Assembly (NCBI RefSeq): GCF_030532715.1
Contig: NZ_JAUNKO010000001.1
Coordinates: 186,001 to 250,000 of the forward strand
DNA: 64,000 nt
Source: Corynebacterium sp.
GTDB taxonomy: Bacteria > Actinomycetota > Actinomycetes > Mycobacteriales > Mycobacteriaceae
Direction of reading: 5' to 3'
Positions 10,653 through 27,895 of this stretch are shown one piece after another. Each line of letters begins with the position of its first letter. Within the stretch, counting starts at the first letter, position 1. The notes under the pieces were generated by a model. The model did not search any database. It saw only the letters and a list, made by a program, of their open reading frames with translations, and had not been told where the DNA came from. The translations under genes and the position numbers were made by a program.

Positions 10653-13600
10653 TTAGGTAGCCAGGCCGGGGTACTTCACGGCCAGCACCATAGCTTCCGC
10701 CGCGATAAGGTCGCCGGTGACAAGGTCTGGGACAATGTCCGCGAGCTGGCTCCAACCTTGGGCGGCTTCCGTCAGCAGCTTTGATTTACCCATCAGGCCG
10801 TGGGCGTGCATCCGGGCGGACAACGCAAACACCAGCGACACCACGGGCACTAGCGCCCAGACGTTCGAAGGATCGTTGGTGTCCACGCCGTCGAGTTTGT
10901 CAAAGCGGATACGTGCCGAGGCGTAGATTTGGCGGTTCGCGCCACGCAACGCGCGCAGCAGGGACACCGCAGGCTTGATCAGTCCTTGGTCGCGGAGCAA
11001 ACCCTGGAGGCTGTCACGGTGTTTAAAGGTTTCAAACACGGCGAGTAGGCGCGCGGAATCTTCCATGATGGGACCAGGCACGATTTCGGCTTGGGAGAAG
11101 AACATTGCCAGCAACGTCTGCTGCTGGGCTTCGTTCATGTGGGCGATCTGGACGGTGGATTTATCAATGCACGCGGTGTCCAGGGTAGCGTCACGACCCG
11201 TTGCCAGGGTTTCAATCAGCCGTTTACCAGCAACTTGCTCAAGGGAGTCGAGGACATCCCGCAGTTCGGAGCGCGACGCCCCCTCCTCCACCGAAGCATA
11301 GCGAACGGGTAGTTGGGCGAGTAGTTCGAGCGTGCCAATCCAGGCGGTGCGGTGCACCTCAGTGACGGGTTCGCTGCCGGCAAATGCGCCGTGAACGAGA
11401 CCGGAGGCAATCACTCGACCGGGTTGCTTTTCAGCGGGAACCAGGGATGCGGAAAGCCCTTTCAGGGCGGCGTTGGGATTTGCCGCGAGGGCGGTCACCA
11501 CCGCGCGGTCGGGCCCCACGGTGCCCCAGCTATCGAGGTAATCCCACAGCACAGGCATAACAGCAGGATCTTCCGGAGCAGTTTCGGAAGCGCCCGAAAG
11601 GAAGGCGGACAATTCGACCAACGCCGCGGATTGACTCGAGTAGTAGCCCTCTTGTTCGACTGCGAAGGCGTCGGGGCCGGGGGCGAGCGGGGGCCGCAAT
11701 TCGGTGAGCGGATCGGCGGAGAACAATTGCACTTTGAGCGGGCCTGCGTTCACCAGCGCTGTGGGCAGCGGGGTGCGCGGCGACACGGCAACAGTGCGTG
11801 CCGACGCCCACGGGGCCGACGCCGGCCACACCCACGCGGACAACTGCCGGTCATTGTTGAGATCGGCGAACACTAACTCGCCGTCTTCGATCACGCAACC
11901 TGACGCGTGCGGTGCGGACTCCACCGCCGCGATGTTCACGCTCACTCGCTTGTCCCCGCGCGCATCGGTCCATTCGAATTCGACGCGGCCGCTCGTCATC
12001 ACCTGGGTGGAGGCCGCAAGCTGGGCCATGGGCGTCGAGTAGGTGCGGGCGTCGTCACGCGAAAGCTTGACGGTGCGCAGCGGGGCGCCGTGGTGATTGC
12101 GAACAGTGATTTTCGGGTCCCCCAATTCGCCGGTGGCGCGGATGCGCAAGGTGCCCGCGGGGTCAAACTGGCGCGGCCGCACCACCAAGCGAGTGGTACG
12201 CCACATGGGCGGCATGGTGGTCAGGGGGACCTCGAATTGCAACCGTGGCGGAATAAAGCGTAGCGGCATGCTGTCACCCTCGTCGGTGGTGACCACGAAG
12301 TCGACACCCGGCGCGTCCGGTGCCACCCGCACATCCGCCGGGGTGACCTGGAAATGTTTCTCGCCGGACTTGACCATCAACGCAGCTTCACTCAGGCCGC
12401 CCTGCGCGGGGATACGAAACGACCTGCACAAACCGGCGATTTCGGTGCTGGACAACATGCCTTCGACGATGGCGTACTCGTGACGGAAGGATTCGTTGCG
12501 CGGCCCCCGCAACCGGATGAGGTATTCGCCAACCCAGGGTGCGTCGTATACGTCGGGATCGAAAATATCGAACAAACCGCCCTCGGCGGGGATCTCCAAC
12601 GGCTCCGCAGGGGCGACCTCCTCCCCCGCGTTCCCGGTGCCCGCGTAGGAGGAAATTGACAGGTACCACGTTTCGGCGCGGCCGGAGACGGTCGGCGGGA
12701 ATTCCGCCACGAGGGAATGCGCGTGCACCGGCAACCCACCGTGCGAAAACACGTACGGAATTGCGGCGCCGGGGTCGCGGAACATCACGCGCTTTCGCGG
12801 GTCCACGCATCGCACCTGGTGCATCGCCGAGGGAGATTGATCCGGACGCACAGCTTGCAACGAAGCGATATTGTGCGCGTCAACGCGGCGGCAGGACCAT
12901 GCCGTCCAACCTTCGATTTCAAGGGTTTCGGTGACCGGGATTTCCGCGCCGGTAACCACGTCAATGAGCGTAGCGTCCTCGGGGCACACCACCAACAATT
13001 CGGAATAGTGCAGGGAAGCTTTGTCCGTAATATTGGCGCCCTTTGGACTGAACACCAGTACGGGGTCATGAGTATCCACGACGGGCAACACCCAGGTGGA
13101 ACCGTTCGTGACATCCGCGACGCTCAGCTCACGGACCTGGCGGTTGATGGTGAGATCCAACGCCTCGGTGCACGGATGCCCCTCGCCCCACATTCGGCCG
13201 GTGCGGTACACCTTCGTCGTGCCGTCTAACGTAACCCGCCACTGCACTTCGTCCTCATCGGGACCGAGCAATTGTTCGGGCAAGCGCACGCAAATTTTGT
13301 TCCGGGCAATGTCCAATACGATGCGCGGCCGCGCCTCCCGCGTGGCGACGCCGACGGCTTCCGCACGGTTGTACGTCCCGGCGGGCCGTTCACGCAACTC
13401 GGCGATCACGGCGTCGCGCACCAAGGCGGGCAATTCCGGCAGCGGCCGATCCTGCCAATCAGTCGGATGTGTGATCGTGTGGTTCCGCAACGCCATCACG
13501 TCCCGCAGCACCGGCTGCAGCAATTGCGGAGCGCATTCCGCGCAGGCAGCGGTGACATCCAACGGCAACGCCGAAGCCACGGCGTCGAGAGCATCGTCGG

Positions 13601-14171
13601 CGTCGGTGGCTTCAGCGGCTGCGCCGGACTGAGCTTGCAGGCTGCGGTACTCCCCGGATGTCAGTGCGACAACAACGTCTTCTGCGGTGGCTTGCGGGTC
13701 GAGCGCGTCGAGCAGCTCCATAAGCCCGGCGACTTCCGCACCGGTGATGCCGGCGTGCAGGGCAAGCGCAAGCACGGGATTGCACCCATTGGGGACGACG
13801 AGGCCAACGGTATCAAGCAGCTCGAAGGTGATTCCTTCCAGCACACTCAGCCAGGCGGCGTCCGCGCGCAAATCCAATCCCCCGAGGTATTCCCCATAAA
13901 AGTTCGCAGGATCCACCATGTGGGCGGCACGGGCGACCAAGGTTGCCGTGGCCAACGCTGGGGTGTCGCGCAACAGTGCTTCCAGATCAGCACCGGCGGA
14001 AAGTTGGCGGGATAAAAAGGTTCCGTAAAAGCGATCAATCCGCTCCAGTTCATCAGCAGCAAGCCCCGCTTCAATGAACAACGAACGTTCAGCAAACCGC
14101 TGATTGAGGGTGAGTTCGGTTTGGGAGGCCCAACCGAGTAGCGAATCATTCAGATCGGCAATGCCGCTCAT
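10653..14171 (-). CDS. Unrecognised 1172-residue protein
   Basis: The protein starts at MSGIADLNDSLLGWASQTE (base 14171); the frame is open 52 codons further upstream but that part is Arg-rich and looks non-coding. No signal peptide or membrane segment is visible. Residues 1-250 are mainly helical and Leu/Ala-rich. Residues 280-830 look like successive beta-sandwich or Ig-like units, rich in Val, Thr and Pro (for example VQWRVTLDGTTKVYRTGR and FEVPLTTMPPMWRTTRLVV). The last 300 residues are helical again. No P-loop, helicase or nuclease motif was found. Such large helical-beta-helical proteins occur in some defence loci, but nothing next to it supports that. It is divergent from the glycoconjugate operon. 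Confidence 0.85.
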   Translation of the reverse strand: MSGIADLNDSLLGWASQTELTLNQRFAERSLFIEAGLAADELERIDRFYGTFLSRQLSAGADLEALLRDTPALATATLVARAAHMVDPANFYGEYLGGLDLRADAAWLSVLEGITFELLDTVGLVVPNGCNPVLALALHAGITGAEVAGLMELLDALDPQATAEDVVVALTSGEYRSLQAQSGAAAEATDADDALDAVASALPLDVTAACAECAPQLLQPVLRDVMALRNHTITHPTDWQDRPLPELPALVRDAVIAELRERPAGTYNRAEAVGVATREARPRIVLDIARNKICVRLPEQLLGPDEDEVQWRVTLDGTTKVYRTGRMWGEGHPCTEALDLTINRQVRELSVADVTNGSTWVLPVVDTHDPVLVFSPKGANITDKASLHYSELLVVCPEDATLIDVVTGAEIPVTETLEIEGWTAWSCRRVDAHNIASLQAVRPDQSPSAMHQVRCVDPRKRVMFRDPGAAIPYVFSHGGLPVHAHSLVAEFPPTVSGRAETWYLSISSYAGTGNAGEEVAPAEPLEIPAEGGLFDIFDPDVYDAPWVGEYLIRLRGPRNESFRHEYAIVEGMLSSTEIAGLCRSFRIPAQGGLSEAALMVKSGEKHFQVTPADVRVAPDAPGVDFVVTTDEGDSMPLRFIPPRLQFEVPLTTMPPMWRTTRLVVRPRQFDPAGTLRIRATGELGDPKITVRNHHGAPLRTVKLSRDDARTYSTPMAQLAASTQVMTSGRVEFEWTDARGDKRVSVNIAAVESAPHASGCVIEDGELVFADLNNDRQLSAWVWPASAPWASARTVAVSPRTPLPTALVNAGPLKVQLFSADPLTELRPPLAPGPDAFAVEQEGYYSSQSAALVELSAFLSGASETAPEDPAVMPVLWDYLDSWGTVGPDRAVVTALAANPNAALKGLSASLVPAEKQPGRVIASGLVHGAFAGSEPVTEVHRTAWIGTLELLAQLPVRYASVEEGASRSELRDVLDSLEQVAGKRLIETLATGRDATLDTACIDKSTVQIAHMNEAQQQTLLAMFFSQAEIVPGPIMEDSARLLAVFETFKHRDSLQGLLRDQGLIKPAVSLLRALRGANRQIYASARIRFDKLDGVDTNDPSNVWALVPVVSLVFALSARMHAHGLMGKSKLLTEAAQGWSQLADIVPDLVTGDLIAAEAMVLAVKYPGLAT

Positions 14172-14668
14172 ACGTGTCAATCCCCTTGATGATGTCCGGT
14201 GAGAACTCCAAGCATAGCCCGCAGCGAAACACTTTCTCAGGTCGCTCATGTGCTGCCCAAAACCCGACCGAACAAGCCCGCCGCGCCGTGCACGGGTGTA
14301 ACCTCTCCGGATTCCGCTACGTGGCACGAAAGTTCCCGCCTAGCGAGAACCTGCATAGTTTTGTTACCAAACGCGAAAAGTTTCGGGGCCGGAAAAAGCT
14401 GACGCCTCAAACTTGGGCGGCCGCACGCGCAAAATGAAGCAAAGATTAAAAACCGTAAATATTATGCGTAAATCGTGGCCTTGGCGAGCGGGAACGGAAA
14501 CGAAAATGTGTCCGTTTATTCAGGTAGAAAGATAGCAAAAACGCCACTTTCCAGTTTTTTAAAATTTTGGCTGTACACCCCGGCAAACGCGACCCCAGCT
14601 TTGATCAATAGGTGAAACTGATAAAAATGTTGAAGTTTTTACCGCCCGGCTCGCTTCGGCGTTTTGCA

Positions 14669-14841: not shown

Positions 14842-14887
14842 GAGAACACTTTTTTAACTGCATTGCCAGGGTTACTAAAGGATTGCC

Positions 14888-16072
14888 ATGAATAAGCCAA
14901 TTGTTCGAGTGCTGTTGTACAGCCATGACTCGCAAGGTCTCGGCCACGTACGCCGCAACCTCGCCATCGCCCACCACATCGCCCAAGATTTACCGCGGCG
15001 GCTCGGGTGCGAAGTTTCTGGGTTGCTGGTGTCTGGCCTGCAACCGGGAAACATGTTTCCACTCCCGCCCGGATTCGATTGGGTGACCATTCCGGGGATT
15101 ACCAAACGCGGCCGCGAGTACGAGCCGCGAAGTCTGGGCGGCAGCACCAAAAACCTTATCCACCTCCGCTCAAACCTTCTTAAATCCACGCTGTTGTCGT
15201 TCGAACCACACCTAGTAATCATCGACCGACACATTCTTGGTGTATGGAAGGAGCTGCTGGAACCCCTAGAAAGTGTGCGCGCGGCCTACCCGCAGACTCA
15301 GGTAGTGCTGGGGTTACGGGACGTGCTAGATTCGCCCGAAATCGCGGCCGGGGAATGGGCCCGATTAGGCCATGAAGAAGAACTTGGCGCCATTATTGAC
15401 CACGTGTGGGTGTATGGGGATCCGGCAGTGCACGACCCCGCCGCCACGGGCGAGATCCCGCCCTGGTTGGCGGACCGAGCGAGCTACACTGGGTTCCTTG
15501 CGCATGGCCGTCGGTTAGCCGATCACGATATGGAGCTTGCCCCACAGCCCTTTATTCTCACTACCGCTGGCGGTGGCTCGGACGGGTTCCACCTGCTTCG
15601 CGCAGCCGTTCAACTCGAGGTACCTGCCGACCACGTACACATTGTGGTAACCGGACCTCAGGCAAGCACGAAACAATTCAACGAATTGCGTGAAATTGCT
15701 ACGCCGAATACGCAATTGCACCATTCTTGGCCTGGTTTGAGTACACAAATACAACGTGCCTCCGCGGTGATTTCCATGGGTGGCTATAACACGTCCTGCG
15801 AAATCCTTGCTTCGAACACCCCAGCACTCATTGTTCCGCGGGAATATCCGCGCCTCGAACAACTCATTCGCGCACAATCTTTCAACAATGTTGGGGCGGT
15901 AGATTATCTGCGACTCGACCAATGCCAACCCACGGTTTTAAGCACTTGGGTGGCTGACGCTGTACACCGCACCGTGGATCGTTCACATATTAAACGTGAT
16001 GGGCTTACCACCGCTGCGAAATTCGCCGCCAAATGTGTTGAATACAACATCGCAGAGGGAGCAGTACCATGA
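14888..16072 (+). CDS. MurG/GT28-like glycosyltransferase (COG4671 type)
   Basis: This 394-residue protein begins with VRVLLYSHDSQGLGHVRRNL, the GxGHxRR N-terminal motif of MurG-like and COG4671 glycosyltransferases. The C-terminal nucleotide-sugar domain has TTAGGGSDG (about residue 225) and SMGGYNTSCEILASNTPALIVP (about residues 297-318), with the acceptor/donor Gly loop and a Glu, as in GT-B enzymes. No signal peptide is visible; it should act on the cytoplasmic face. AAAGGA precedes the ATG by five bases. It opens a seven-gene operon and overlaps the next gene by four bases. Donor and acceptor are unknown. Confidence 0.88.
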   Translation: MNKPIVRVLLYSHDSQGLGHVRRNLAIAHHIAQDLPRRLGCEVSGLLVSGLQPGNMFPLPPGFDWVTIPGITKRGREYEPRSLGGSTKNLIHLRSNLLKSTLLSFEPHLVIIDRHILGVWKELLEPLESVRAAYPQTQVVLGLRDVLDSPEIAAGEWARLGHEEELGAIIDHVWVYGDPAVHDPAATGEIPPWLADRASYTGFLAHGRRLADHDMELAPQPFILTTAGGGSDGFHLLRAAVQLEVPADHVHIVVTGPQASTKQFNELREIATPNTQLHHSWPGLSTQIQRASAVISMGGYNTSCEILASNTPALIVPREYPRLEQLIRAQSFNNVGAVDYLRLDQCQPTVLSTWVADAVHRTVDRSHIKRDGLTTAAKFAAKCVEYNIAEGAVP

Positions 16073-17265
16073 GCCGAATTGGTTACGTTTTAAAGGTTTA
16101 TCCGAGATTTTCGGAAACGTTTATCGTTACGGAGATTCTCGCCCGCGAGACCCAGGGCGAAGACCTTGATATCTTCGCGTTGCGCCCCACCACGGACGCT
16201 CGTTTCCACCCGGAACTTGCACGTATCCAGGCGAATGTTCGCTGGGTGTCGCGCCCGCAGCTGGGCACCGGGTTTTGGGATGAATTGGGTGCCGCGTTGC
16301 GTCATCCGGTCATTGGCCCACGCGTCCAGGAAATCTTGCCGCAATTGGTGGATCTGCCGTTTGACGAAGTTTCCCAAGGGGTGACCCTCGCCCGCATGGC
16401 TCACGATCACGGCATTACACATTTGCACGCGCATTTCGCTTCCCTGCCGGGCCGAATTGCCTATATTGCCTCAACCATTACTGGGATTCCGTATACGGTG
16501 ACCACGCACGCGAAAGACATTTTCCACAACAGCGTTGATATTGATTGGTTGCGCAAGATTTGTGGGAACGCCGCACAGGTTATTGCTATTAGTCAATACA
16601 ACGAGCGCTACCTCAACACCGTCCTCGAGGGCACCGGCGCAAATGTACGACTGTGCTATAACGCCCTCGAACTGAATCGGTTCCCCTATTACCCGCCGTT
16701 GCCGTTAAAAGGTTTGTTGCGGATTGCGGCGGTGGGTCGACTCGTGCCCAAGAAAGGTTTTGACCACCTGATTGCGGCGGTTGCGCAGGTTCGCGCCGCC
16801 GGGTGGGACGTGGAGCTGACCATCGGCGGCGGCGGAGAGCTGTACGAGGCGTTACAGGCGCAGGTGAAGCAACTACAGCTTGATGACGTCGTGCGCCTCC
16901 TCGGCCCAATCAACCAAAGCGAGGTTCGTGACCTCATCGCCCGATCGCATGTGTTTGTGGCGCCTTGCGTGCCCACAGCGGACGGCAACATTGATGGCCT
17001 TCCCACCGTAGTGTTGGAGGCGATGGCCAGCGGCATTCCCGTGATCGCCACCGCCGTCACCGGCCTGCCCGAAGTGATTCGTGACGGCGACACCGGCATC
17101 CTGCTCGAGCCTGGGGACACTCCCGCGCTGGTGGCCGCATTGCAGCGGTTTGCCGCCGGCGAGGTGGACACCACCCGACTGACCCAAAACGCCCGCGCAC
17201 TGATTGAAGAACACTTCGATAGCAGCCAGCAAGCCCAAACCCTTCGTCGATGGCAGAGCGGATAG
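16069..17265 (+). CDS. GT4-family glycosyltransferase
   Basis: The 398-residue GT-B enzyme begins MSRIGYVLKVYPRFSETFIV, a start typical of colanic-acid/exopolysaccharide GT4 proteins. It contains HLHAHFAS near residue 125, HAKDIFH near residue 150, VGRLVPKKGFDHLI near residue 223 and the retaining EX7E motif (DGLPTVVLEAMASGIPVI) near residue 306. It probably transfers a sugar to a growing lipid-linked or secreted glycan. It overlaps the preceding gene by ATGA and precedes another GT4 gene by nine bases. Sugar specificity cannot be read from the sequence. Confidence 0.92.
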   Translation: MSRIGYVLKVYPRFSETFIVTEILARETQGEDLDIFALRPTTDARFHPELARIQANVRWVSRPQLGTGFWDELGAALRHPVIGPRVQEILPQLVDLPFDEVSQGVTLARMAHDHGITHLHAHFASLPGRIAYIASTITGIPYTVTTHAKDIFHNSVDIDWLRKICGNAAQVIAISQYNERYLNTVLEGTGANVRLCYNALELNRFPYYPPLPLKGLLRIAAVGRLVPKKGFDHLIAAVAQVRAAGWDVELTIGGGGELYEALQAQVKQLQLDDVVRLLGPINQSEVRDLIARSHVFVAPCVPTADGNIDGLPTVVLEAMASGIPVIATAVTGLPEVIRDGDTGILLEPGDTPALVAALQRFAAGEVDTTRLTQNARALIEEHFDSSQQAQTLRRWQSG

Positions 17266-17274
17266 GAGCACCCC

Positions 17275-18390
17275 ATGAACATCGCTTATGTATGCGTAGA
17301 TCCAGGCATCCCGGTATTCGGGACGAAAGGCGCCTGCGTGCACATGCAGGAGGTCATCCGCGAGCTCTTGCGACGCGGGCACAACGTCACGGTATTCGCC
17401 GTACGAAAGGGCACATTCATTCCCGATGATCTGCGCGAACTCGAAGTCCGCGAATTTCCTATCGAGGCGAAAGAAACCGCCGAGCGGGAACTTGCCCAGC
17501 AGCAACGCTCCGAAGAGATCAGCGCCGAAATCATCCGCGGCAATTTCGATCTCATCTACGAACGCTACTCGCTGTTCAGTACCGTCATCGCCACCTCCCA
17601 AATCCCCGGAATCCTCGAAGTCAACGCACCTCTGATCGAAGAACAACGCACGCACCGGGCGCTTCACGACATCGCGAGCGCCTCCGACGCGCTCCAATTG
17701 CAGGTTTCCCACGCTCGGGTTACGGTGTGTGTTTCGGAAAATGTGCGCACCTGGGTATCCCATCGAACCGTGGGCGGACGGGTTGTGACCGTGCCCAACG
17801 GCGTCAACCCTGAACGCATTGTGCCGCAGCCGGAGGATACCGACGGCGCACCGGTAGTCACGTTTGTGGGCACCCTCAAACCGTGGCACGGCGTGTCCGA
17901 CCTGCTGATCGCCGCCAGCTACGCAAACCACCCGTGGCGCATTCGCATTCTTGGCGACGGCCCGGAGCGCCCCGCCCTCGAGCACCTCGCCGAGAAGCTG
18001 GGGTTAAGCGTGGATTTCCGAGGTGCAATCGCCCCGGCGGAAATGCCGAAGCATTTGGCGGGCACCGCCATCGCGGTGGCTCCCTACCCGGCGGCCCAAA
18101 CGGACTCCGACCAATACTTCTCACCACTCAAGCTTTTCGAATACATGGCTGCGGGCCTGCCGATCGTCGCCTCTCAGGTCGGGCAAATCCCCAGCATTCT
18201 GGGCACAGCTGGAGAACTGGTGCCGCCATCACATCCGGAAGCGTTGGCACTCGCAATTGATGGCTTGGTTGCTGACCCGGGGCGTCGAAAAATACTGGGC
18301 GATCAGGCGCGTGCGTTAGCCGTGCGGGAACACAGTTGGCAGCAGGTGGTCACCACCATGCTGCGGCTAGCCGGGGTTGAGGTGACGTGA
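17275..18390 (+). CDS. GT4-family glycosyltransferase, second
   Basis: This 371-residue GT-B protein starts MNIAYVCVDPGIPVFGTKGA and carries the N-terminal VCVSENVR and VPNGVNPERI segments, FVGTLKPWHGVSDLL (about residue 198) and the C-terminal SPLKLFEYMAAGLPIVAS motif with the EX7E Glu. It is distinct from the preceding GT4 and only loosely similar. AGGAG lies eight bases before the ATG. The stop codon overlaps the start of the ABC exporter (TGATG). Two GT4 enzymes plus a GT28-like one imply a glycan of at least three linkages. Confidence 0.92.
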   Translation: MNIAYVCVDPGIPVFGTKGACVHMQEVIRELLRRGHNVTVFAVRKGTFIPDDLRELEVREFPIEAKETAERELAQQQRSEEISAEIIRGNFDLIYERYSLFSTVIATSQIPGILEVNAPLIEEQRTHRALHDIASASDALQLQVSHARVTVCVSENVRTWVSHRTVGGRVVTVPNGVNPERIVPQPEDTDGAPVVTFVGTLKPWHGVSDLLIAASYANHPWRIRILGDGPERPALEHLAEKLGLSVDFRGAIAPAEMPKHLAGTAIAVAPYPAAQTDSDQYFSPLKLFEYMAAGLPIVASQVGQIPSILGTAGELVPPSHPEALALAIDGLVADPGRRKILGDQARALAVREHSWQQVVTTMLRLAGVEVT

Positions 18391-20183
18391 TGCCCAAGCA
18401 ACCCTTACGGCGGACGCTCGAACTGGTGGGCCCGCACGTCAAGCCGGAACGAAAACTCATCTTCGGCGGAACCCTCGCGTTGCTGTTTGAAGTGTGCTTT
18501 CGAGTATTGGAGCCATGGCCGCTCAAAATCGTGGTGGATGCGCTGTCCGTATCGTTGGGGGCGCACACCGCTGGTATGCCGGCGTCGCTCAACCTACTCC
18601 TCGTGTGCGGCATCGCGCTGATTTGCCTCACCGCCCTACGCGCGCTTTCAAACTATTTAGCTACCGTCGCGTTTACCCTCGTGGGGTCGCGGGCGTCGAC
18701 AACGCTACGCATGCAAGTGTTCAAACACGTGCAGCGATTGCACCAGCAATTCCACTCCCGCAACCGGTCGGCGGACACGGTGCAGCGCATCGTAGCCGAC
18801 GTCAACCGCATGCAGGAAGTAGCCGTCACCGCTGGGCTGCCGCTGCTGGCCAACGTGGTGACCTTCCTCGCAATGATGGTGGTGATGTTCGTACTCGATC
18901 CGGTGTTATCCCTGGTCGTGCTGGCAGCACTGATCTTGTTCGCCATCGCATCCCGCAATACGTCGCGCAGCATCGCCACCGCGTCGCGCAACACTCGCAA
19001 AGCGGAGGGCCGGCTGGCCAACACCGCCCAAGAATGCCTTTCCGCCATTGAGGTGGTGCAGGCCTATGTGCTGGAAGCGGTAATTAGCAAACGTTTTGTC
19101 GAGGCGAACATGAAAGCCCTCAACGCCGGGGTGAGTTCCCGCAGGCTCGCCGCACGCCTCGAACGCACCACCGATGCCATCGTCGGTTTGGCCACGGCGG
19201 CGGTGCTCATAGGCGGCGGGCTACGCGTGCTGGATGGCGCCATGACCCTTGGCGACCTCGTGCTGTTTACCACCTACCTGCGCACCACAATGAAACCGCT
19301 GCGTGACATGGCCAAATACACGGGACGCATTGCCCGCGCCACCGCGTCGGGCGAACGGGTGGCCGATCTTATGGAAGTCTCCTCCGATATTGTGACGCCC
19401 ATCGACCCTGTCGTCCCGTACACCATCAAAGGCCGCATTACGTTCGAAAACGTCTACACGGACTACGAGGATGTGCTGATCCTGCGCAACTTCAACTTGT
19501 CCATCGAACCCGGCGAAGTCATCGCAGTGATCGGACCGTCAGGGGCGGGGAAATCCACGCTCGCCTCGCTGCTCGTGCGCGCCATCGACCCGATCAAGGG
19601 CGAAGTAAAGCTGGACGGGCATCCCTTGCGCGACATCGACCTGGTTTACCTGCGCGAATTGGTTTCGCTGCTCCACCAAGAGGCCATCTTGTTTACCGGC
19701 ACCATTCGAGAGAACATTCGCTTCGGTCGCCGAGATGCGACGGACGAAGAAATCATCGCCGCAGCAAAGGCTGCCCGCGCGCACGACTTCATCATGGAAT
19801 TCCCCGAGGGCTACGACACCCATGTCGGCGAACGCGGCAACACGCTCTCTGGTGGGCAACGGCAACGCATCGCCATCGCCCGCGCACTCCTGCGCAACAC
19901 GCCCGTAGTGATTCTGGACGAACCCACCACCGGCCTCGACCCCGAGTCCGCGACCCTCGTGATGGACGCCATCCACGACCTCGTCGAAGGTAAAACCACC
20001 ATCGCCGTCACGCACGATCCCGAGGTGGCCATGGGCGCCGACCGCGTGGTGTGGATTCAAGACGGCCAAGTGCTGTGGCAGGGCCACCCAGACGACCTGC
20101 TGGTCAATAACGCCGACTTCCAGGCGTGGATCAACAACGGGACCCAGTCCGTGCCACGCGCTGCGATCGGAGAGCAATTGTGA
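18390..20183 (+). CDS. ABC exporter half-transporter (membrane and ATPase fused)
   Basis: The 597-residue protein has about six membrane segments in residues 20-310 and a nucleotide-binding domain in residues 350-590. The Walker A motif is GPSGAGKST, the signature LSGGQRQR, Walker B VILDEPTTG, with an H-loop in AVTHDPEVA. It is a type IV (MsbA-like) exporter that should act as a homodimer. Its position among glycosyltransferases suggests export or flipping of a glycolipid or lipid-linked oligosaccharide. ATG at 18390 overlaps the preceding stop; GTG at 18387 is an alternative. The gene overlaps the next one at GTGA. Confidence 0.93.
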   Translation: MPKQPLRRTLELVGPHVKPERKLIFGGTLALLFEVCFRVLEPWPLKIVVDALSVSLGAHTAGMPASLNLLLVCGIALICLTALRALSNYLATVAFTLVGSRASTTLRMQVFKHVQRLHQQFHSRNRSADTVQRIVADVNRMQEVAVTAGLPLLANVVTFLAMMVVMFVLDPVLSLVVLAALILFAIASRNTSRSIATASRNTRKAEGRLANTAQECLSAIEVVQAYVLEAVISKRFVEANMKALNAGVSSRRLAARLERTTDAIVGLATAAVLIGGGLRVLDGAMTLGDLVLFTTYLRTTMKPLRDMAKYTGRIARATASGERVADLMEVSSDIVTPIDPVVPYTIKGRITFENVYTDYEDVLILRNFNLSIEPGEVIAVIGPSGAGKSTLASLLVRAIDPIKGEVKLDGHPLRDIDLVYLRELVSLLHQEAILFTGTIRENIRFGRRDATDEEIIAAAKAARAHDFIMEFPEGYDTHVGERGNTLSGGQRQRIAIARALLRNTPVVILDEPTTGLDPESATLVMDAIHDLVEGKTTIAVTHDPEVAMGADRVVWIQDGQVLWQGHPDDLLVNNADFQAWINNGTQSVPRAAIGEQL

Positions 20184-21295
20184 CGACCATGACCGCGCAC
20201 GCACTCAGCGCGCTACTGGACACCACTTGGCTCAGCAAACATTGCGGACGCCCAGTGCGGGCAACGGCCCTGCGCATAAAACCTGACACCTCCATCCTTG
20301 CCGCGCTACAAAACCATACCGACGGGCGTTTCGACGGCTGGGTGCGCTTCATGTGGCCAGCCGGGCACACCAAAGCCCACAAATTGCACGAATGGGCGCG
20401 CGCGCACGGCTATGCGGTGGAAACCACCAAGGTGTTCCGGCGGCTAGTGTTCCAACACGGCCAGCTCGAAGCCGACCCGAAACTGGGGCCCACGATGCAG
20501 CCCGACCACTTGGGCTTTCACGTCGGCGAGTTTGGCACCATTCTGCGCTACAACCCGGCCCGCCGGATTGTCTACCGCGACGCCGAGCAAGTCATCCGCA
20601 TCACCGTGGCCAAGGACACACTCAATATGCCGGTGTATCAGCATGTCTCGCAGGCGATTCCCACCCCGGTGCGCTTGGACGATGGCGGCAACCCGCGCGT
20701 CAGTATCATGCAAGCGGTCGGCGATGCCACGCTCGAGCATTCGCCGACGCTACCGGCCACCATGCAAGCCGGCCGTATCCTGGCCCAGCTTCATATGTCC
20801 ACCCCAACACTTACGCGCGACCTAGCCGATCGGCTCTATGAGCGCTACGATACGTTCCCCCACCGCATGGAGGCGCACGCCCGCATTTTCAGCATGCTCG
20901 CCCCCGAGCTGGCCAACCGCATTGTGCGCCTCAGCGCACGCATCCCAACGATGCGACGTGACACTCCAGTACTGGTGCACGGTGACGCCTCCCCCGATCA
21001 ATTCCTAATCAACCGGCACAACGCCGACATCTGGCTCACCGACTTCGACCGCGCACACCTCAACCCCGCAGCCTGTGACCTCGGCTCCTACCTTTCAACG
21101 GTGGACGAGCAACACGGCGCGGCGCTGCTTGAAGGCTACGCAAACACCCGCGGATTTTTGCCCCGACAATCCCAGATTCGCATCGCGCAACTCCAAGCCA
21201 CCCTGCTGCGAGTTGCCGAACCGATGCGCTCTGGAGATCCGGAATGGCGCAGCACCACCGCCAATACGTTGAGCAAGGTGGAGGAACTCCTGTGA
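20180..21295 (+). CDS. APH/choline-kinase-fold phosphotransferase, first
   Basis: The 371-residue protein has the C-terminal kinase lobe of the aminoglycoside phosphotransferase family: VLVHGDASPDQFLI (about residue 263) with the catalytic Asp, and LTDFDRAHLNPAACDLG with the metal Asp. The Asn usual four residues after the catalytic loop is Gln here. The N-terminal lobe contains RFDGWVRFMWPAGHTKAHKL. It could phosphorylate a sugar, lipid or nucleoside intermediate of the pathway; it is not evidence for antibiotic resistance. Start GTG at 20180 overlaps the ABC gene stop; ATG at 20189 is possible. Confidence 0.82.
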   Translation: MTTMTAHALSALLDTTWLSKHCGRPVRATALRIKPDTSILAALQNHTDGRFDGWVRFMWPAGHTKAHKLHEWARAHGYAVETTKVFRRLVFQHGQLEADPKLGPTMQPDHLGFHVGEFGTILRYNPARRIVYRDAEQVIRITVAKDTLNMPVYQHVSQAIPTPVRLDDGGNPRVSIMQAVGDATLEHSPTLPATMQAGRILAQLHMSTPTLTRDLADRLYERYDTFPHRMEAHARIFSMLAPELANRIVRLSARIPTMRRDTPVLVHGDASPDQFLINRHNADIWLTDFDRAHLNPAACDLGSYLSTVDEQHGAALLEGYANTRGFLPRQSQIRIAQLQATLLRVAEPMRSGDPEWRSTTANTLSKVEELL

Positions 21296-22296
21296 ACCCT
21301 GCACTAAGTACCCTGCATGAACTGCCCCGCATTCGTCGCGGTTGGCCCGGAACACACGGCACCCTCACCTTCGAACAATACGACGAATCGGGTCGACTGC
21401 GGGCGGGTCGCATACACGCCGACGGGACCGTCACGCTCGCCGAATACGCGAGCGATCCAAAGCTCCCAGAGCTGGCGCCGCCCACCGCGGGTGAGCTCGT
21501 GGTGCACAGATTGGGTAAACGCGGCGTGATTATCTACGAACACAGTGTGCGAAAATTCCTGCGCCCACAGCGCGTCGAATCGGTGGCAACGGCAACACAT
21601 GCAGCACACGAACTCTGCGCACCAACTGGGATACGAACCGCACAAGTGATCACTACGACGCCGGGGAGCTTAAGCACGGAAAAGCTTCCCGGAGCAACTC
21701 TGCACCAGCTCGCCGATGACGGCTTAGCGGGTTGGCGCCGGTTCGGCCAACTCTGGCCAGAGGTAGTGCGCCAACGCCACCATTGTGCCCGCCCGCACCA
21801 CGCCACCAGCGAATGCCAAGTGCTGCAAGAATGGCTCGGACACGCCACCCGGTTTGGCGCCATCCCAGCGCCTGAACGGTGCCAACAACTCGTCGCGGAA
21901 ATATGCAACGAACTGCAACAACCACAAGGTGAGCTCGTGGTGTGTCACCGCGATTTACACGACAAGCAATTGCTGTGGGATGGCCACGACCTCTGCCTGC
22001 TCGACACCGATACCCTCACCATGGCGGAAGCCGCGCTCGATTTGGGCAATCTGTTGGCCCACGCCGAGTTGCGGTACCTGCAGGGGGTGTTGAGCGCGGC
22101 GTCATTACAGCAGGTGCGCGACATCCTTCATACCCTTGCGGCAACATTGGAGGTTCCGCAACAACGTTTGAACGCCTACACTCGGAGCGCCGCGGCACGG
22201 CTGGCGTTTGTGTACGCGTTTCGGCCGCACGCCAAGCCGTGGCTGGCACAGTGGCTGGCACATTGCTTCACCCAACAACGAAAGGAAACAGAATGA
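21292..22296 (+). CDS. APH/choline-kinase-fold phosphotransferase, second
   Basis: The 334-residue protein starts at GTG 21292, overlapping the previous stop. It shows VVCHRDLHDKQLLWDGHDL near residue 217 and CLLDTDTLTMAEAALDLGNLLAH with the metal Asp, both features of the APH-fold kinase lobe. As in its neighbour, the metal-binding Asn is Gln (HDKQ). The N-lobe has GVIIYEHSVRKFLRPQR, which resembles the lysine region of this family. The two kinase genes are only weakly alike and may act on different steps or as a pair. It overlaps ugd by four bases. Confidence 0.82.
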   Translation: MNPALSTLHELPRIRRGWPGTHGTLTFEQYDESGRLRAGRIHADGTVTLAEYASDPKLPELAPPTAGELVVHRLGKRGVIIYEHSVRKFLRPQRVESVATATHAAHELCAPTGIRTAQVITTTPGSLSTEKLPGATLHQLADDGLAGWRRFGQLWPEVVRQRHHCARPHHATSECQVLQEWLGHATRFGAIPAPERCQQLVAEICNELQQPQGELVVCHRDLHDKQLLWDGHDLCLLDTDTLTMAEAALDLGNLLAHAELRYLQGVLSAASLQQVRDILHTLAATLEVPQQRLNAYTRSAAARLAFVYAFRPHAKPWLAQWLAHCFTQQRKETE

Positions 22297-23612
22297 AAAT
22301 TTCAGTAATTGGTTGCGGCTACCTCGGCGCAGTCCATGCCGCATGCATGGCGAGCCTCGGCCACGACGTCGTGGGCATTGACACCGACGCTGAAAAAATC
22401 GCGGCACTTGCCAGCGGTGAGGCACCGTTCTACGAACCTGGCCTACCCGAAATACTCGGGCCCGCCGTGCGGAATAAAAAGCTGCGTTTCACGACCGCCC
22501 CAGCGGCGAAGGAACTGGCCGCCAGCGAGGTGATTTTCATCGCCGTTGGCACGCCGCAATCCAAAGACAGTCCCGCCGCAGATTTGACCTACCTGGAATC
22601 CGCGATGAAATCCATCTTGGACGCCATGCCGACCAACACCAAAGCAGTGGTCGTAGGCAAGTCCACCGTGCCGGTAGGCACTGCCGAACGACTGGCCAAG
22701 CAGTGTTCGCAACGCGGATTAACCCTCGTGTGGAATCCCGAATTCCTCCGCGAAGGCTTCGCGGTGAAAGATACCCTGCACCCTGACCGCATCATCTACG
22801 GCTTACCCAGCGATGAGGACGCCGCCCGCCACGGCGAAGCCAAGCTGGACGCGGTGTATGAGCAAATCCTGCTGGAGGGCATGCCGAAGATTGTCACCAA
22901 CTACCCCACCGCCGAGCTCGTGAAGGTGGCTGCGAACTCGTTTTTGGCCACAAAGATCAGTTTTATCAACGCCATGGCGGAATTGTGCGAGGCCACCGGC
23001 GGAGATGTCACCCAGCTTGCTGAGGCGCTCGGGCACGACGACCGCATCGGGCACAAATTCCTCCGTGCCGGCGTCGGATTTGGTGGCGGCTGCCTACCCA
23101 AGGATATTCGCGCATTCGTCGCCAGGGCCGAGGAACTTGGTGTACATGAGGCCGTGTCCTTTTTGAAGGAATTGGATGATATTAACCAGCGTCGCCGTGA
23201 CCGCGTCGTCGCCGAAGCCAAACGCAATTTCGACGGCAACGTTGAGGGGAAGAAGATCACCGTGCTGGGCGCGGCGTTCAAACCCAATAGCGACGACATC
23301 CGTGACTCACCCGCCCTCGAAATCGCTCGGCGCCTGCACAACTTAGGAGCGTACGTCACGGTATGCGACCCGAAGGCGTTGGAATCCGCCAAGCGCGCCT
23401 ACCCAGAGCTCAACACCGAGGCAGATGTCACCGTGGCACTCGCCGGGGCTGAGCTGGTACTGCTACTCACCGAATGGCAAGAATTCGTGGCACTCGACCC
23501 CGCGGAAACCGCACAAGTAGTCGAACAGCCGGTAATTATCGACGGCCGCAACGCACTCAACCCGAAACGTTGGCGCGCCGCAGGCTGGGCATACTCCGGC
23601 TTGGGCCGCTAA
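22293..23612 (+). CDS. ugd: UDP-glucose 6-dehydrogenase (UDP-sugar/GDP-mannose dehydrogenase family)
   Basis: The 439-residue enzyme begins MKISVIGCGYLGAVHAACMA, an NAD-binding Rossmann motif. It has IFIAVGTPQ, VGKSTVPVGT, the NPEFLREG motif and the catalytic-Cys segment GVGFGGGCLPKDIRAF (about residue 258), then the third domain with GAAFKPNSDDIRDSPA. It oxidises UDP-glucose (or a related nucleotide sugar) to the uronate with two NAD. AAAGGAAAC precedes ATG 22293. As last gene of the operon it supplies uronate for the glycan, presumably UDP-glucuronate. Confidence 0.94.
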   Translation: MKISVIGCGYLGAVHAACMASLGHDVVGIDTDAEKIAALASGEAPFYEPGLPEILGPAVRNKKLRFTTAPAAKELAASEVIFIAVGTPQSKDSPAADLTYLESAMKSILDAMPTNTKAVVVGKSTVPVGTAERLAKQCSQRGLTLVWNPEFLREGFAVKDTLHPDRIIYGLPSDEDAARHGEAKLDAVYEQILLEGMPKIVTNYPTAELVKVAANSFLATKISFINAMAELCEATGGDVTQLAEALGHDDRIGHKFLRAGVGFGGGCLPKDIRAFVARAEELGVHEAVSFLKELDDINQRRRDRVVAEAKRNFDGNVEGKKITVLGAAFKPNSDDIRDSPALEIARRLHNLGAYVTVCDPKALESAKRAYPELNTEADVTVALAGAELVLLLTEWQEFVALDPAETAQVVEQPVIIDGRNALNPKRWRAAGWAYSGLGR

Positions 23613-23631: not shown

Positions 23632-23651
23632 AGGCGAACCATCGTTCGCCT
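23632..23651. terminator. Hairpin between convergent ugd and smc
   Basis: The arms AGGCGAAC (23632-23639) and GTTCGCCT (23644-23651) pair perfectly around a 4-base loop, and the right arm includes the smc stop codon. T tracts are short on both sides, so termination may be weak, but the position between convergent genes fits a bidirectional terminator. Confidence 0.5.
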
Positions 23652-26600
23652 ATGCGGGGCTCATGCGTTGGCTCATCACCTGAGTGATGCCATCGCCGCG
23701 CATGGTGACCCCGTACAACACATTGGCCACATCCATGGTCGGCTTTTGATGTGTAATCACAATCAATTGCGAATCTTTACGCAGCTCGCGGAACAGATCA
23801 AGCAACCTGCGCAAATTCACGTCGTCGAGCGCAGCCTCCACCTCGTCCATAACGTAAAACGGGCTCGGCCGCGCTTGGAAAATCGCCACTAACATCGCCA
23901 GCGCCGTCAATGATTTCTCGCCGCCCGAAAGCAGCGACAAACGCTTGACTTTCTTCCCCGGCGGCCGCGCCTCCACTTCGATGCCGGTGGCAAGCATGTC
24001 GTCGGGGTCGGTGAGCACCAGCCGCCCCTCCCCGCCTGGGAACAGCGTGGCAAACACATGCGGGAACTGCCGCTCTACGTCGAGCCAGGCGTCTGTAAAC
24101 AACTGCAGAATCTTCGCGTCAACTTCCTCAATCACGTCGTGGAGGTCTTTGCGCGCCCGCTGCACATCCGCCAACTGCCCGGCGAGGTATTCGTAGCGCT
24201 CCTCCATGGCCGTGTACTCCTCCAACGCCAATGGATTCACTTTCCCCAACGCAGCGAGGTCTTTCTCCGCCTTCCGCAAACGCTCCGTTTCCGCGGCGCG
24301 ATCGAACGAATCATCGGGTGCGTAGTCGCGTCGAATCACGTCCGCCGGCACACCCAACTGCTCAGTAAGCTTCGCCTCGGCTTCCTCGATGCGCACCTGC
24401 GCTTGGTGCCGCGCGATATCCGTAGCATGCGCGTTATCGGTCAGCTTTCCCAGATGCGCGCGCCTAGAGTTCACCTCATCATTCGCACGCGACAGCAAAC
24501 TTTGCACGTGGTTTCGTCGCGCCACCAGCTCATCGCGGGACAGCGCCGCCCGCGCGGTAGCATCGGCGACGCGCACCCGTATTTCAGCCGTGCATTCCGC
24601 CACGGTCGCGGCCAGCTGCACTTGGTGTCGACGCCGCGCCACCTGCTCCTCGTGCCGCGCCTTATTGAGCCGTTCCTGCTGAGCTTGTCGGCGCAAACTA
24701 TCGGCCTGCCCACGCGACACACCGGCGCGCTCTTCGGCGGTCCGAAGTGTAAGCCGCGCCTCCACCTCCATCGCACGAATCTGACCGAGCGCCGTCGTCG
24801 CGGCGTCGCGAGCCTCTGTCGAAGGCTCCTCGTCGCTATGCTGTTCCACCCGAGCCAGCCGGTCCCGGGTGTGCGCCAATTCATCGTTAAGTTGATCAAG
24901 ACGCTGTGTCGCCTGCTGCACGCTCGCCTCCGCGCGGTCCCGTTCCCCCAACGCAGCATCGAGGTGGGCTTGTGCGCGACGCGCCTCCCGTTCGAAGGAT
25001 GCCGCCTCCACATCGTGATCACGCACCGCGGCCAGCGCACTGGCTGCTGCAATCCGTGCCTCCTCAGCGGCGGCGTTCGCCCCTTGCAACGTGCCCGAAA
25101 GTTCCATTGATTGCGCGCGCAAGCTTTCCAATTCGTCGGTGGCATGCGCGATATCCGCGCCGATTTCTACAGCAGTGGCCGCACCCTTGCCGAAGGCGAG
25201 CCAACCTTCGCCAACTAATTCGCCACCGGTGGTCACCGCTCGCAACCGTGGGTCCGCGGCCACCACCGCTTGGGCGGCAACCACGTCATCCACCACAACC
25301 ACATCGGCCAGCAACCGCGTGATCGCGCCGGCGACGGTATCCCCCACACGCACCACGTCAAGGAGCCAACGCGCACCGCTGGGAAGTTGCGCCTCCATGC
25401 GCCACGGCGCAACGTTTGAGGTGCTCATCACTACCGTACGCACCACCGACGCTTCCGCCAGCGCGGCGGCGTCAAACTCTGCGACGACCAAGGCTTGGGA
25501 GTGTCCACCCAACGCTGCCGAAAGCGCCGTGGCATAACCCTCGTCGGGGGTTACTAAATCCACGAGGTCGGTGGCGCCTGGAAGCAGCTCAACCGCATCA
25601 GCTGCAGGCAGCGAAACACTCAGCGTTTCAATGCGGGATTCCAAACGCGCAATAGCCTTGTCAAAGTCGCGCCCGCGAGCATTGAGCTCTTTGAGGCGCT
25701 GCTCAGCCGCCGCCGACTCCTCCTGTGCGCTGTTCGCGCGCGTAGCCAACGAGGTACGCGCAAAGTGCATCTCCTGCAGGCGGTCCTGCATGGATTGGGC
25801 TTCCTGCTTAGCCGCGGTGATCCGCGAATCGGATTGCTCCAAGGATTCCCGCTGCCGTGCGATATCGGCTTCCAACGTGCCAATCTGATTGCGCTGGGAT
25901 TCCTCGGCGGCTACAAGGCGCACCACGCCTTCACGGCGATCAGCGAGTGCACGAACCTGCGCCATATGCTCCCGATCGGCCTCCCGTGCGAGCTCCTCAT
26001 GCTCCAACACTTGTTCCCGTATGGATTCGAGGCGTTCCCTGGCGATCTCCACCGACTCGTCAAGCGCGGCTTGCTCCGCCTCGGCTCGATCGGCGCGACG
26101 TTCCAACGCATCGGCGTCCTGCCCGGAATACGGAATCTCCACCACAGCACGTGCGCGATCTTGAGCAATGCGTTCGGTTGCGCTCACCCGCTCCGCGAGT
26201 GCGGAGAGCTCAAACCACAACGATTGAGCATGTTCAGATTGCGGCGTAACCTCCGCCAATTGCTTCTCCAAGGATTGTTGCACCTCAGTGTGCTGGGCCA
26301 ATTCCTCGGTGAGCTGTGCGACCTGGGCGGCATTGCGTTCGGCGATGCGATGGGCGTCGTCACGCTCGGTGGTTAACCGTACGAGTCGGTCACCGGCGAG
26401 ACGAAGGCGCGCATCCCGAAGTTCCGCCTGCACGCTCGCCGCCCGCTGCGCCGCAGCAGCCTGCCGAGCGAGTGGCTTGAGCTGGCGTTTCAACTCGTCG
26501 GTGAGGTCCGTAAGCCGGTCCAGATTCGCCTGCATGCCCACGAGTTTGCGCTGCGCCTTCTCCTTACGGCGGCGGTGCTTCAACACGCCCGCGGCTTCCT

Positions 26601-27084: not shown

Positions 27085-27220
27085 CCGGGCAGTGTAGCGC
27101 ACATTGCTAACACAGCTGGTGAGCGGCTCGCACACGCAACCCAAGGTTGCATCAAACTCATGGACCAACGCCACTAAAACACGGCTCCGCAGTAGCAAAA
27201 AGCCGCGTAGCCTTCCATAT

Positions 27221-27895
27221 ATGACGCCTACAAAACCCATGATTGCCTGCGGCCGCGCCATACTGTTTGACATGGATGGCACCCTGGTGGATTCCTCCGC
27301 CGTAGTTGCAGCGCAATGGCAAAAATTCGCCCACAAGTACGATCTCGACGCTGATGCCGTATACGAGTTTTCCCACGGCCGCACCACCATGGCAACGATT
27401 ACAAAATTCGCGCCGCACCTCACCCCCGGACAACAAGCCGCGGAAGTGAAAGCGATGCTGGAGCACGAACTCCTGCTGCGCGATAAAGTTACTGAAATTC
27501 CCGGCGCACGCGACTTCATAGCCCAGCTCATGGACCTTCGCGCCCCAATGGCGCTTGTCACCAGCGCACCCGGACCCCTCGCCCGCGCCCGCCTGCGCAC
27601 AGTCGGCGTTCCAGTACCCGCAACTGTGATCGCAGCGGAAAATATTACCCATTCCAAACCAGACCCAGAAGGCTACCTCAAAGCCGCAGCAGCTCTCGGC
27701 GTAGCACCAGAAGAAACAGTCGTGTTTGAAGACGCCGCGGCAGGCATCGCAGCCGGTGAATCTGCCGGTGCGCAAGTGGTGATCGTGGGCAACACGATAC
27801 CTCATAAAGACACCCCTCACCCGCGTATCACGGATTATCGAAACCTACAGGTGCGGCGCTCCGGCGACGGCACGTTGAACATTACGGCGACCTAA
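27221..27895 (+). CDS. HAD-superfamily sugar-phosphatase-like hydrolase
   Basis: The roughly 224-residue protein has the nucleophile motif ILFDMDGTLVDSS near its N-terminus, a helical cap, VTSAPGPLAR (motif II Thr/Ser), KPDPEGY (motif III Lys) and VVFEDAAAGIAAGESAG (motif IV). This is the layout of phosphoglycolate/2-deoxyglucose-6-phosphate/glycerol-3-phosphate phosphatases of the HAD subfamily I. Substrate is unknown. The start could be ATG 27221 (MTPTKPMIACG) or ATG 27239. It diverges from smc. Confidence 0.88.
   Translation: MTPTKPMIACGRAILFDMDGTLVDSSAVVAAQWQKFAHKYDLDADAVYEFSHGRTTMATITKFAPHLTPGQQAAEVKAMLEHELLLRDKVTEIPGARDFIAQLMDLRAPMALVTSAPGPLARARLRTVGVPVPATVIAAENITHSKPDPEGYLKAAAALGVAPEETVVFEDAAAGIAAGESAGAQVVIVGNTIPHKDTPHPRITDYRNLQVRRSGDGTLNITAT

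What the first reader, a model, noticed from the sequence alone, without database searches (positions are those of the whole stretch)
14888..23612. Seven-gene glycoconjugate operon inserted between ftsY and smc
Seen: seven overlapping or nearly overlapping forward genes (COG4671-like glycosyltransferase, GT4, GT4, ABC exporter, two APH-fold kinases, UDP-sugar dehydrogenase) break the usual close spacing of smc and ftsY, which are on the other strand. Established: GT-B enzymes, MsbA-like exporters and Ugd are known elements of lipid-linked glycan pathways. Inference: the operon builds and exports a uronate-containing glycan with a kinase step. I know of no described system with exactly this set, and actinobacterial members may form a distinct family. 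No polymerase, flippase or priming transferase is present, so the product may be a small glycolipid rather than a polymer.
Basis: partly seen in the sequence, partly recalled or inferred. Interest (0 to 1): 0.72.

Follow-up and report, generated by a model that had tools for sequence, protein, structure and literature searches.

The report
Kinase-equipped glycan export operon across phyla
A seven-gene operon in this Corynebacterium, whose core recurs in the same gene order in bacteria of six phyla and on E. coli plasmids, is predicted to build a sugar chain, phosphorylate it and pump it out of the cell; no description of it turned up in our literature searches.

Summary
The seven genes are real. 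They form a strictly ordered operon: GT28, GT4, GT4, ABC exporter, APH kinase 1, APH kinase 2, UDP-sugar dehydrogenase. It is inserted between smc and a 1,224-aa gene next to ftsY; smc lies close beside that gene in 23 of the 29 Corynebacterium genomes that have it (of 61 searched). The core order is kept in 58 of 65 named loci with enough flank, spans six phyla (three known only from metagenome assemblies), and the whole set is on plasmids of 18 of 5,426 E. coli genomes. Both kinases keep catalytic motifs with Gln where Asn is usual (kinase 1: 72 of 72; kinase 2: 88 of 92) and model confidently as APH-fold kinases. In several diderm bacteria an outer-membrane porin (Alginate_exp or OprB) follows the operon. 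Fusions (kinase-kinase, exporter-kinase) link phosphorylation to assembly or export. Substrate, product and co-transcription are untested, and the dehydrogenase is a weak clue. No paper describing the set was found, in an open-access library only. Verdict: real, widespread, apparently undescribed.

The parts
14888..16072 (+). GT28-type GT-B glycosyltransferase (first gene; Glyco_tran_28_C; best solved relative by profile is MurG)
   Evidence: Pfam PF04101 37.6 bits; profile vs PDB 1f0k 46.6 bits; 53 invariant columns in 17 diverse relatives, including SHD..G.GH, GYN...E and PR...R.EQ.IRA
16069..17265 (+). GT4 glycosyltransferase a
   Evidence: PF13692/PF00534 119.9/119 bits; overlaps the gene before by 4 bases
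17275..18390 (+). GT4 glycosyltransferase b
   Evidence: PF13692 83 bits, PF13439 49 bits
18390..20183 (+). ABC exporter of the ABCB/MsbA type (fused TMD-NBD); ORF list starts at GTG 18387, ATG at 18390 preferred
   Evidence: PF00664 139, PF00005 119 bits; TIGR02204 394 bits, below its cut-off of 780; Walker A GPSGAGKS, LSGGQ, Walker B; closest solved chains by score are eukaryotic ABCB proteins, then Sav1866 and MsbA
20189..21295 (+). APH-fold kinase 1 (HGDASPDQ ... DFD), with an extra N-terminal part of about 93 residues
21292..22296 (+). APH-fold kinase 2 (HRDLHDKQ ... DTD); ATG 21244 is an alternative start
   Evidence: PF01636 29.8 bits; H, D and Q kept in 88 of 92 profile-labelled frames, window included; model pLDDT 96.2; glucosamine kinase and maltokinase high in Foldseek, APH(4) first in the second look
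22293..23612 (+). UDP-sugar (probably UDP-glucose) 6-dehydrogenase; the only PF03721 match in this genome
   Evidence: TIGR03026 413.5 bits, over its cut-off; GFGGGCLPKD motif; single hit in own genome
14328..14887 (+). 560-base intergenic leader, candidate regulatory region
   Evidence: 14851-14890 is 87.5% identical to the sister locus; small ORFs of five leaders are unlike each other; no sigma-70-like site on the + strand
10653..14327 (-). Flank: 1,224-aa protein of unknown family, usually beside smc
   Evidence: No Pfam/NCBIfam match; beside smc in 23 of 29 genomes
23650..27657 (-). Flank: smc
   Evidence: PF02463 over cut-off
8492..10408 (-). Flank: ftsY
   Evidence: TIGR00064 333 bits, over cut-off

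Best explanation
This is one copy of a widely shared operon that is predicted to assemble a glycan in the cytoplasm with three glycosyltransferases, to phosphorylate it or its precursor with two kinases, and to export it through an MsbA-type ABC pump, likely as a soluble rather than lipid-anchored product. Shown: the gene set, its strict order across phyla, intact motifs in the kinases, exporter and dehydrogenase, insertion next to smc, and porins beside the operon in several diderm loci. Inferred: the GT28 enzyme starts or caps the chain and the two GT4 enzymes extend it. Inferred: the dehydrogenase supplies UDP-glucuronate or a similar donor to this pathway and, where it is the only copy, to other needs of the cell. 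Inferred: the kinases phosphorylate a sugar of the growing or finished glycan, and this phosphate marks the product for the exporter. That last step rests on kinase-kinase and exporter-kinase fusions only.
For: Order GT28-GT4a-GT4b-ABC kept in 58 of 65 named loci with at least 7.5 kb downstream; 57 of the 58 have an APH-profile match after GT28 and 49 have both kinds (the loci are the best 80 of 591 confirmed). In 51 loci with 8.5 kb on both sides, APH matches of 25 bits or more lie downstream in 47 and within 8.5 kb upstream in 0. All 13 GT28-positive genomes among 151 Corynebacterium carry the run, this one included. Same set plus an Alginate_exp protein on E. coli plasmids. Outer-membrane partners: Alginate_exp in 4 loci; OprB downstream in 6 cyanobacterial loci; a Porin_O_P protein upstream in one Phycisphaerales locus. 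HxDxxxxQ without motif selection: kinase 1 in 72 of 72 frames, kinase 2 in 88 of 92; confident APH models. Fusions: both kinases in one frame in 3 of 12 other corynebacterial loci, with a fourth split, and in 7 of 80 named loci; exporter and kinase in one frame in L038 (Pfam-confirmed), L046 and L117. The four corynebacteria without an operon dehydrogenase each have one elsewhere.
Against: No product, substrate or transcript was measured. MsbA relatives can move lipids or lipid-linked sugars, and GT28 includes lipid-acceptor enzymes such as MurG (both recalled), so a lipid carrier remains possible. No porin was found at the tested place in several diderm loci: Crocosphaera L096 and L128 and Tildeniella L129; in Pasteurellaceae L094 and L119 the gene tested after the operon is a helicase and a YadA-type piece, and in Marivita L098 two genes gave no Pfam match. 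Only 11 of the 58 core loci have a dehydrogenase within 10.5 kb, and it is near-universal in Corynebacterium. Seven cyanobacterial core loci (L091, L096, L099, L102, L105, L128, L129) and one Arthrobacter locus (L088) show one kinase only, and L127 none with room. Four kinase-2 frames depart from HxDxxxxQ. The usual GT4 E-x7-E is not at its usual place (recalled) in either GT4. The E. coli GT28 protein has no Pfam match, although it scores 273 bits with our profile.
Confidence: 0.5

Rival explanations
1. Small phosphoglycolipid: GT28 glycosylates a lipid (diacylglycerol or polyprenol phosphate), the GT4 enzymes extend it, kinases add phosphate, and the MsbA-type pump flips the lipid, which stays in the envelope. 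This is.
For: GT28 profile is nearest to MurG among solved chains; the exporter scores 349.7 bits with the lipid A exporter MsbA model and 394 with MsbA_rel; no polymerase match among the seven. In S. meliloti, removing msbA2 is harmful only when its upstream glycosyltransferases are intact (passage of PMC12239276), as if an intermediate builds up.
Against: Outer-membrane porins of different Pfam families beside the operon in several diderm loci suggest that the product crosses the outer membrane in water. Both MsbA models are well below their curated cut-offs, and eukaryotic ABCB chains and Sav1866 score above MsbA.
Confidence: 0.3
2. Glycosylated or phosphorylated natural product (for example a peptide): the kinases resemble LxmK of class V lanthipeptide synthesis and the exporter secretes the product.
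For: LxmK is the best NCBIfam hit of both kinases (28.4 and 20.8 bits), and LxmK structures top the Z list for kinase 1 (20.6, rmsd 3.2 over 255).
Against: Far below the LxmK cut-off of 315; other small-molecule kinases tie within 1 Z; no scaffold gene among the seven proteins and the small ORFs of five leaders are unlike each other.
Confidence: 0.08
3. The kinases act on free sugars to make sugar phosphates for nucleotide-sugar donors, and are not part of the exported product's make-up.
For: Foldseek ranks glucosamine kinase first for both kinases, and maltokinase high for kinase 2.
Against: The glucosamine-kinase signature is absent in 71 of 71 aligned rows; TM-scores to these kinases are low (0.31-0.53); no nucleotidyltransferase match among the seven; exporter-kinase fusions point to the export step.
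Confidence: 0.12

Closest known systems
Plasmid-borne E. coli cluster (L135, L136; no name or study found)
   Same: Same order of GT28, GT4, GT4, ABC, APH, APH, then dehydrogenase; kinases with HGD....Q and HRD....Q
   Different: An Alginate_exp outer-membrane protein lies between kinase 2 and the dehydrogenase; sequences are distant (GT28 about 29% identical; no Pfam match for it)
S. meliloti msbA2 operon (SMb21188-21191)
   Same: Glycosyltransferases plus MsbA-like exporter for an unknown glycan; exporter loss harmful only with the glycosyltransferases intact (passages)
   Different: Has an acyltransferase; in the 14-kb stretch only the exporter matches our profiles (215.8 bits), with no GT28, GT4, APH or dehydrogenase match
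Rhizobial redA/redB-type cluster (L132, L137-L139)
   Same: GT28 and GT4 homologues in the same order, followed by an ABC-type protein, with dehydrogenase nearby in R. etli and Shinella
   Different: Third enzyme is GT28-like (by our profile; by Pfam in L137), ABC protein scores only 31-44 bits, no APH match
Wzx/Wzy, KpsMT-type and synthase-dependent polysaccharide systems (recalled)
   Same: Make and export glycans, some with uronates; synthase-dependent systems use AlgE-type outer-membrane proteins
   Different: None of their hallmark proteins is among the seven; export is by a fused ABC protein with dedicated kinases
Cyclic beta-glucan exporter NdvA/ChvA (recalled)
   Same: Fused ABC exporter for a glycan made in the cytoplasm (TIGR01192 235 bits, PRK13657 297 bits)
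   Different: Below the curated cut-offs (585 and 733); no glucan cyclase; kinases and three GTs here

Membership tests
MsbA lipid A exporter (TIGR02203) / MsbA_rel (TIGR02204) | Score over the curated cut-off | tested here: not met
   349.7 of 602 and 394.2 of 780.4 bits; it looks like such an exporter but is not filed as MsbA
Fused TMD-NBD ABC exporter | ABC_membrane + ABC_tran with Walker A, LSGGQ, Walker B | tested here: met
Wzx/Wzy polysaccharide pathway | Flippase, polymerase and priming phosphotransferase in the operon | tested here: not met
   None of the seven proteins matches such a family (NCBIfam lists capped at 25 for two of them); the rest of the genome was not searched for them
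Group 2 ABC-dependent capsule | KpsM/KpsT pair and KpsC/KpsS Kdo transferases in the operon | tested here: not met
   No such match among the seven
UDP-glucose 6-dehydrogenase | Three-domain NDP-sugar dehydrogenase with G.GG.C.PKD cysteine motif | tested here: met
   TIGR03026 413.5 of 189.8 bits; motif. TuaD model 371 of 700 and AglM 337 of 670: exact substrate not settled
APH-fold kinase (PF01636) | Gathering score and HxD ... DxD catalytic motifs | tested here: met
   51.9 and 29.8 of 23.2 bits; H, D and Q kept in 72 of 72 and 88 of 92 frames; Gln where Asn is usual (recalled)
Actinobacterial glucosamine kinase | Signature Q-x2-RE-x2-YA-x3-LP-x-W (PMC6520443, passages) | tested here: not met
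   0 of 71 aligned rows
Class V lanthipeptide kinase LxmK | NF038156 score over 315 | tested here: not met
   28.4 and 20.8 bits
S. meliloti msbA2 operon | Homologous glycosyltransferases beside the exporter | tested here: not met
   Only the exporter matches in L133
COG4671 | Match to the COG model | not testable with these tools
The word occurs in 0 papers of the library
This operon family (defined here) | GT28-GT4-GT4-ABC in order plus at least one APH-fold kinase | tested here: met
   Window and 12 of 12 other Corynebacterium loci; 57 of 65 named loci with room

The most novel reading that the evidence does not exclude
The operon is a separate, undescribed class of bacterial glycan secretion machine, spread by horizontal transfer over at least six phyla. 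A pair of HxDxxxxQ kinases phosphorylates the glycan and so licenses it for a dedicated MsbA-type exporter, and diderm hosts add whichever outer-membrane porin they have at hand.
Probability: 0.3. Interest if true: 0.85.

Novelty: new variant of a known kind. Interest (0 to 1): 0.64.

Why it matters
Bacterial surface and secreted glycans are usually assigned to a few export routes. A fixed set of three glycosyltransferases, one or two kinases and an ABC exporter that recurs from corynebacteria and Actinomyces to filamentous cyanobacteria and E. coli plasmids would be a further route with an unknown product. It can be tested directly by gene removal in laboratory strains, and the kinases and exporter give clear biochemical handles. 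If the phosphate gates export, it would be a new way to control glycan release.

Tried and rejected
Literature: redA/redB with Rhizobium etli (none); COG4671 with other terms (1,494 papers held two of three terms, 20 listed, none with COG4671) and alone (none); alginate export with aminoglycoside phosphotransferase and others (none); SMb20808-20812 (one paper, not opened); GT28/GT4/dehydrogenase/Corynebacterium (one review in the listing); glucuronosyl lipids of C. glutamicum (listing only); mixed export terms (17 papers, 8 listed, none opened). Papers seen beyond listings: passages of PMC3687685, PMC12239276 and PMC6520443 only. The library lacks most subscription papers, so a description elsewhere is not excluded.

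Defence system: in PADLOC six of the seven proteins have no match; the exporter's nucleotide-binding part matches mad3 (118.6 bits), mad8, AriA and two others, which I read as shared ATPase homology. Peptide precursor in the leader: ORFs of 25 or more residues in five leaders are unlike each other. Rhizobial redA/redB cluster as a member: rejected for lack of kinases and a divergent ABC. msbA2 operon as a homologue: rejected except for the exporter. Fold comparison could not choose a kinase substrate: rows tie within 1 Z, the first ~93 residues of kinase 1 are barely covered by those rows, and glucosamine kinase is not among the 50 rows shown for kinase 1 there. GT4a and exporter trees were built but not inspected; only the GT28 tree was read (quick method). 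DNA search of plasmids with the whole operon gave only short matches. Promoter and terminator scans were below the shuffled means.

The upstream control covers 8.5 kb, the downstream search 10.5 kb. The Gln counts were made on frames found or chosen with a motif that requires N/Q or Q, so they are circular; one search repeats the count on every frame labelled by the profiles at 25 bits or more, without a motif filter, and is the one quoted. L051 and L025 appear to be the same contig (96,329 bases) and are counted in both sets. The greedy ORF picks lost genes in GC-rich loci and were replaced by six frames. Alignment rows of A1-A5 were a hand-picked spread of loci, those of A2-A5 drawn from the motif-selected list.
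Full report
What is there. The window lies in a 2.63-Mb genome of 10 contigs. Its genus is Corynebacterium: the genome search marks G136 as same genus, and G136's contig of 96,329 bases appears to be the Corynebacterium sp. record NZ_JAUNKC010000009.1 of the same length. Seven + strand genes fill 14888-23612: GT28, GT4a, GT4b, ABC exporter, APH kinase 1, APH kinase 2, UDP-sugar dehydrogenase. Likely starts differ from the ORF list for the exporter (18390), kinases (20189, 21292) and dehydrogenase (22293). Neighbouring genes overlap by a few bases or lie within 10 bases, which suggests but does not show co-transcription. The exporter keeps Walker A, LSGGQ and Walker B, and the dehydrogenase its GFGGGCLPKD motif. 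The dehydrogenase is the only PF03721 match of the genome.

Site. On the - strand, ftsY (8492-10408), a 1,224-aa gene of no known family (10653-14327) and smc (23650-27657) surround the operon. Of 61 Corynebacterium genomes, 29 have the 1,224-aa gene; in 23 of these smc ends within about 520 bases of its matched part, in 2 (this genome and G023) the operon separates them, and in 4, with distant copies, no smc is within 1.5 kb. G010, G018 and G026, which carry the operon elsewhere, are among the 23. So the operon is an insert. GC content falls only in the leader (0.505 in 14000-14999; 0.57-0.64 over the genes), so composition gives no strong sign of recent arrival.

Distribution in the genus and phylum. 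GT28 matches at E <= 1e-20 occur in 13 of 151 Corynebacterium genomes, this one included. All 12 others have the genes in the same order; eight have all seven (G150, G115, G023, G136, G026, G010, G014, G143), and four (G075, G018, G061, G103) lack the dehydrogenase; in three of these four both kinases are one frame of about 650-685 aa, and in G075 the frames are split. In the GT28 tree (quick method, some forks open) the window's group lies in an 18-row set (support 97) with Actinomycetaceae, Propionibacteriaceae and Rothia, where the corynebacterial rows are themselves not one clade; the four others lie near Brevibacterium. That suggests at least two arrivals in the genus. In a spread of 396 genomes of the phylum, 18 have a match at E <= 1e-30, this one included, in 15 of 237 genera.

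Distribution beyond. A scan of named genomes with a 17-sequence GT28 alignment kept the best 80 of 591 confirmed loci. Six-frame searches with profiles of the seven proteins found the order GT28-GT4a-GT4b-ABC in 64 of 80, and in 58 of the 65 with at least 7.5 kb downstream; 57 of those 58 have an APH match, 49 both kinds, and 11 a dehydrogenase within 10.5 kb. As a control, in the 51 loci with 8.5 kb on each side, APH matches of 25 bits or more lie downstream of GT28 in 47 and upstream in 0, and GT4 matches in 51 and 0. Core plus kinase occurs in Actinomycetota, Cyanobacteriota and Pseudomonadota (Aggregatibacter, Actinobacillus, Marivita), and in metagenome-derived Nitrospirota, Planctomycetota and Chloroflexota; labels are those of the records. 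The seven loci with room that break the order are L101, L112, L113, L114, L115, L126 and L130; L101, L112 and L115 are Desulfobacterota-type.

E. coli plasmids. In the plasmid collection GT28 matches 275 records, mostly rhizobial, with 10 Escherichia. L135 and L136 hold GT28, GT4, GT4, ABC, APH, APH, an alginate-export family protein and a nucleotide-sugar dehydrogenase. Their GT28 scores 273-276 bits with our profile but has no Pfam match (L136); the two APH and the dehydrogenase domains of L136 are Pfam-confirmed. The 10.3-kb stretch is in 18 of 5,426 complete E. coli genomes, all on plasmids, at 99% identity or more. So the full seven-gene set is not confined to Actinobacteria.

Rhizobial look-alike. 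Rhizobium, Sinorhizobium and Shinella plasmids carry GT28 (named redA in R. etli), GT4 and a GT28-like gene, then a divergent ABC protein, without APH matches. I treat it as a related but separate cluster. The S. meliloti msbA2 operon is another system: in its 14-kb stretch only the exporter matches our profiles (215.8 bits). It is still a useful precedent, since removal of msbA2 is harmful only if its upstream glycosyltransferases remain (passage of PMC12239276), and the operon was proposed to make and export an unknown polysaccharide (passages of PMC3687685).

Outer-membrane partners. Downstream of the kinases, Alginate_exp proteins lie in L097, L120, L126 and L136 and OprB porins in L091, L093, L099, L102, L105 and L130; a Porin_O_P protein lies upstream in L118. 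L126 and L130 do not have the strict core order, and no kinase was seen in L130. Crocosphaera L096 and L128, Tildeniella L129, Marivita L098 and the gene tested in the two Pasteurellaceae loci show no porin. Different porin families at the same place suggest that the product leaves diderm cells in water, so a soluble glycan is the better reading.

Dehydrogenase. PF03721 is over the cut-off in 58 of 61 Corynebacterium genomes, so it is a poor marker of the pathway. In seven of nine genomes with all seven genes (this one, G150, G115, G023, G136, G026, G014) the operon copy is the only full-length one; G010 and G143 have a second, and the four genomes without an operon copy have theirs elsewhere. 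A dehydrogenase of this family is therefore present in all 13, which fits a uronate-containing glycan but does not prove it.

Verdict. The finding is real and larger than reported: an ordered, inserted operon for making and exporting a probably phosphorylated glycan, with its core in six phyla. Seven literature searches gave no description, within an open-access library only. Mechanism and product remain inference.

Noticed in passing
10653-14327 (-): A 1,224-aa protein without Pfam or NCBIfam match, encoded between ftsY and smc and found in 29 of 61 Corynebacterium genomes.
   Followed up: partly
23632-23651: Seen by eye: an 8-bp inverted repeat (AGGCGAAC CATC GTTCGCCT) between the convergent ends of the dehydrogenase and smc, possibly a shared terminator; not flagged by the scan.
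   Followed up: no
L137 8950-15476, L132, L138, L139: Rhizobial redA/redB-type cluster of GT28, GT4, GT28-like and divergent ABC; where annotated (L132, L137, L139) it is next to an ABC importer and an adenylate cyclase or cyclic-nucleotide-binding or Crp-type gene.
   Followed up: partly
L140 15065-18169: Sulfitobacter ABC protein of 1,034 aa ends in a cyclic-nucleotide-binding domain, downstream of GT28, GT4, a histidine phosphatase and a polysaccharide deacetylase.
   Followed up: no
L063 16799-18993, L064: Arthrobacter loci with two tandem kinase-2 genes (HGDLHD[KR]Q type) after kinase 1.
   Followed up: no
L091, L093, L098, L099, L102, L105, L126, L129 flanks: Genes of two shared clusters flank the operon in eight loci; the one tested (L129) is a histidine kinase, so a two-component system may regulate it.
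   Followed up: partly
L047 10834-15172: A subtilase and a CHAT-domain protein are encoded upstream of the operon in a distant actinobacterium; similar-sized ORFs occur in L045 and L050.
   Followed up: no
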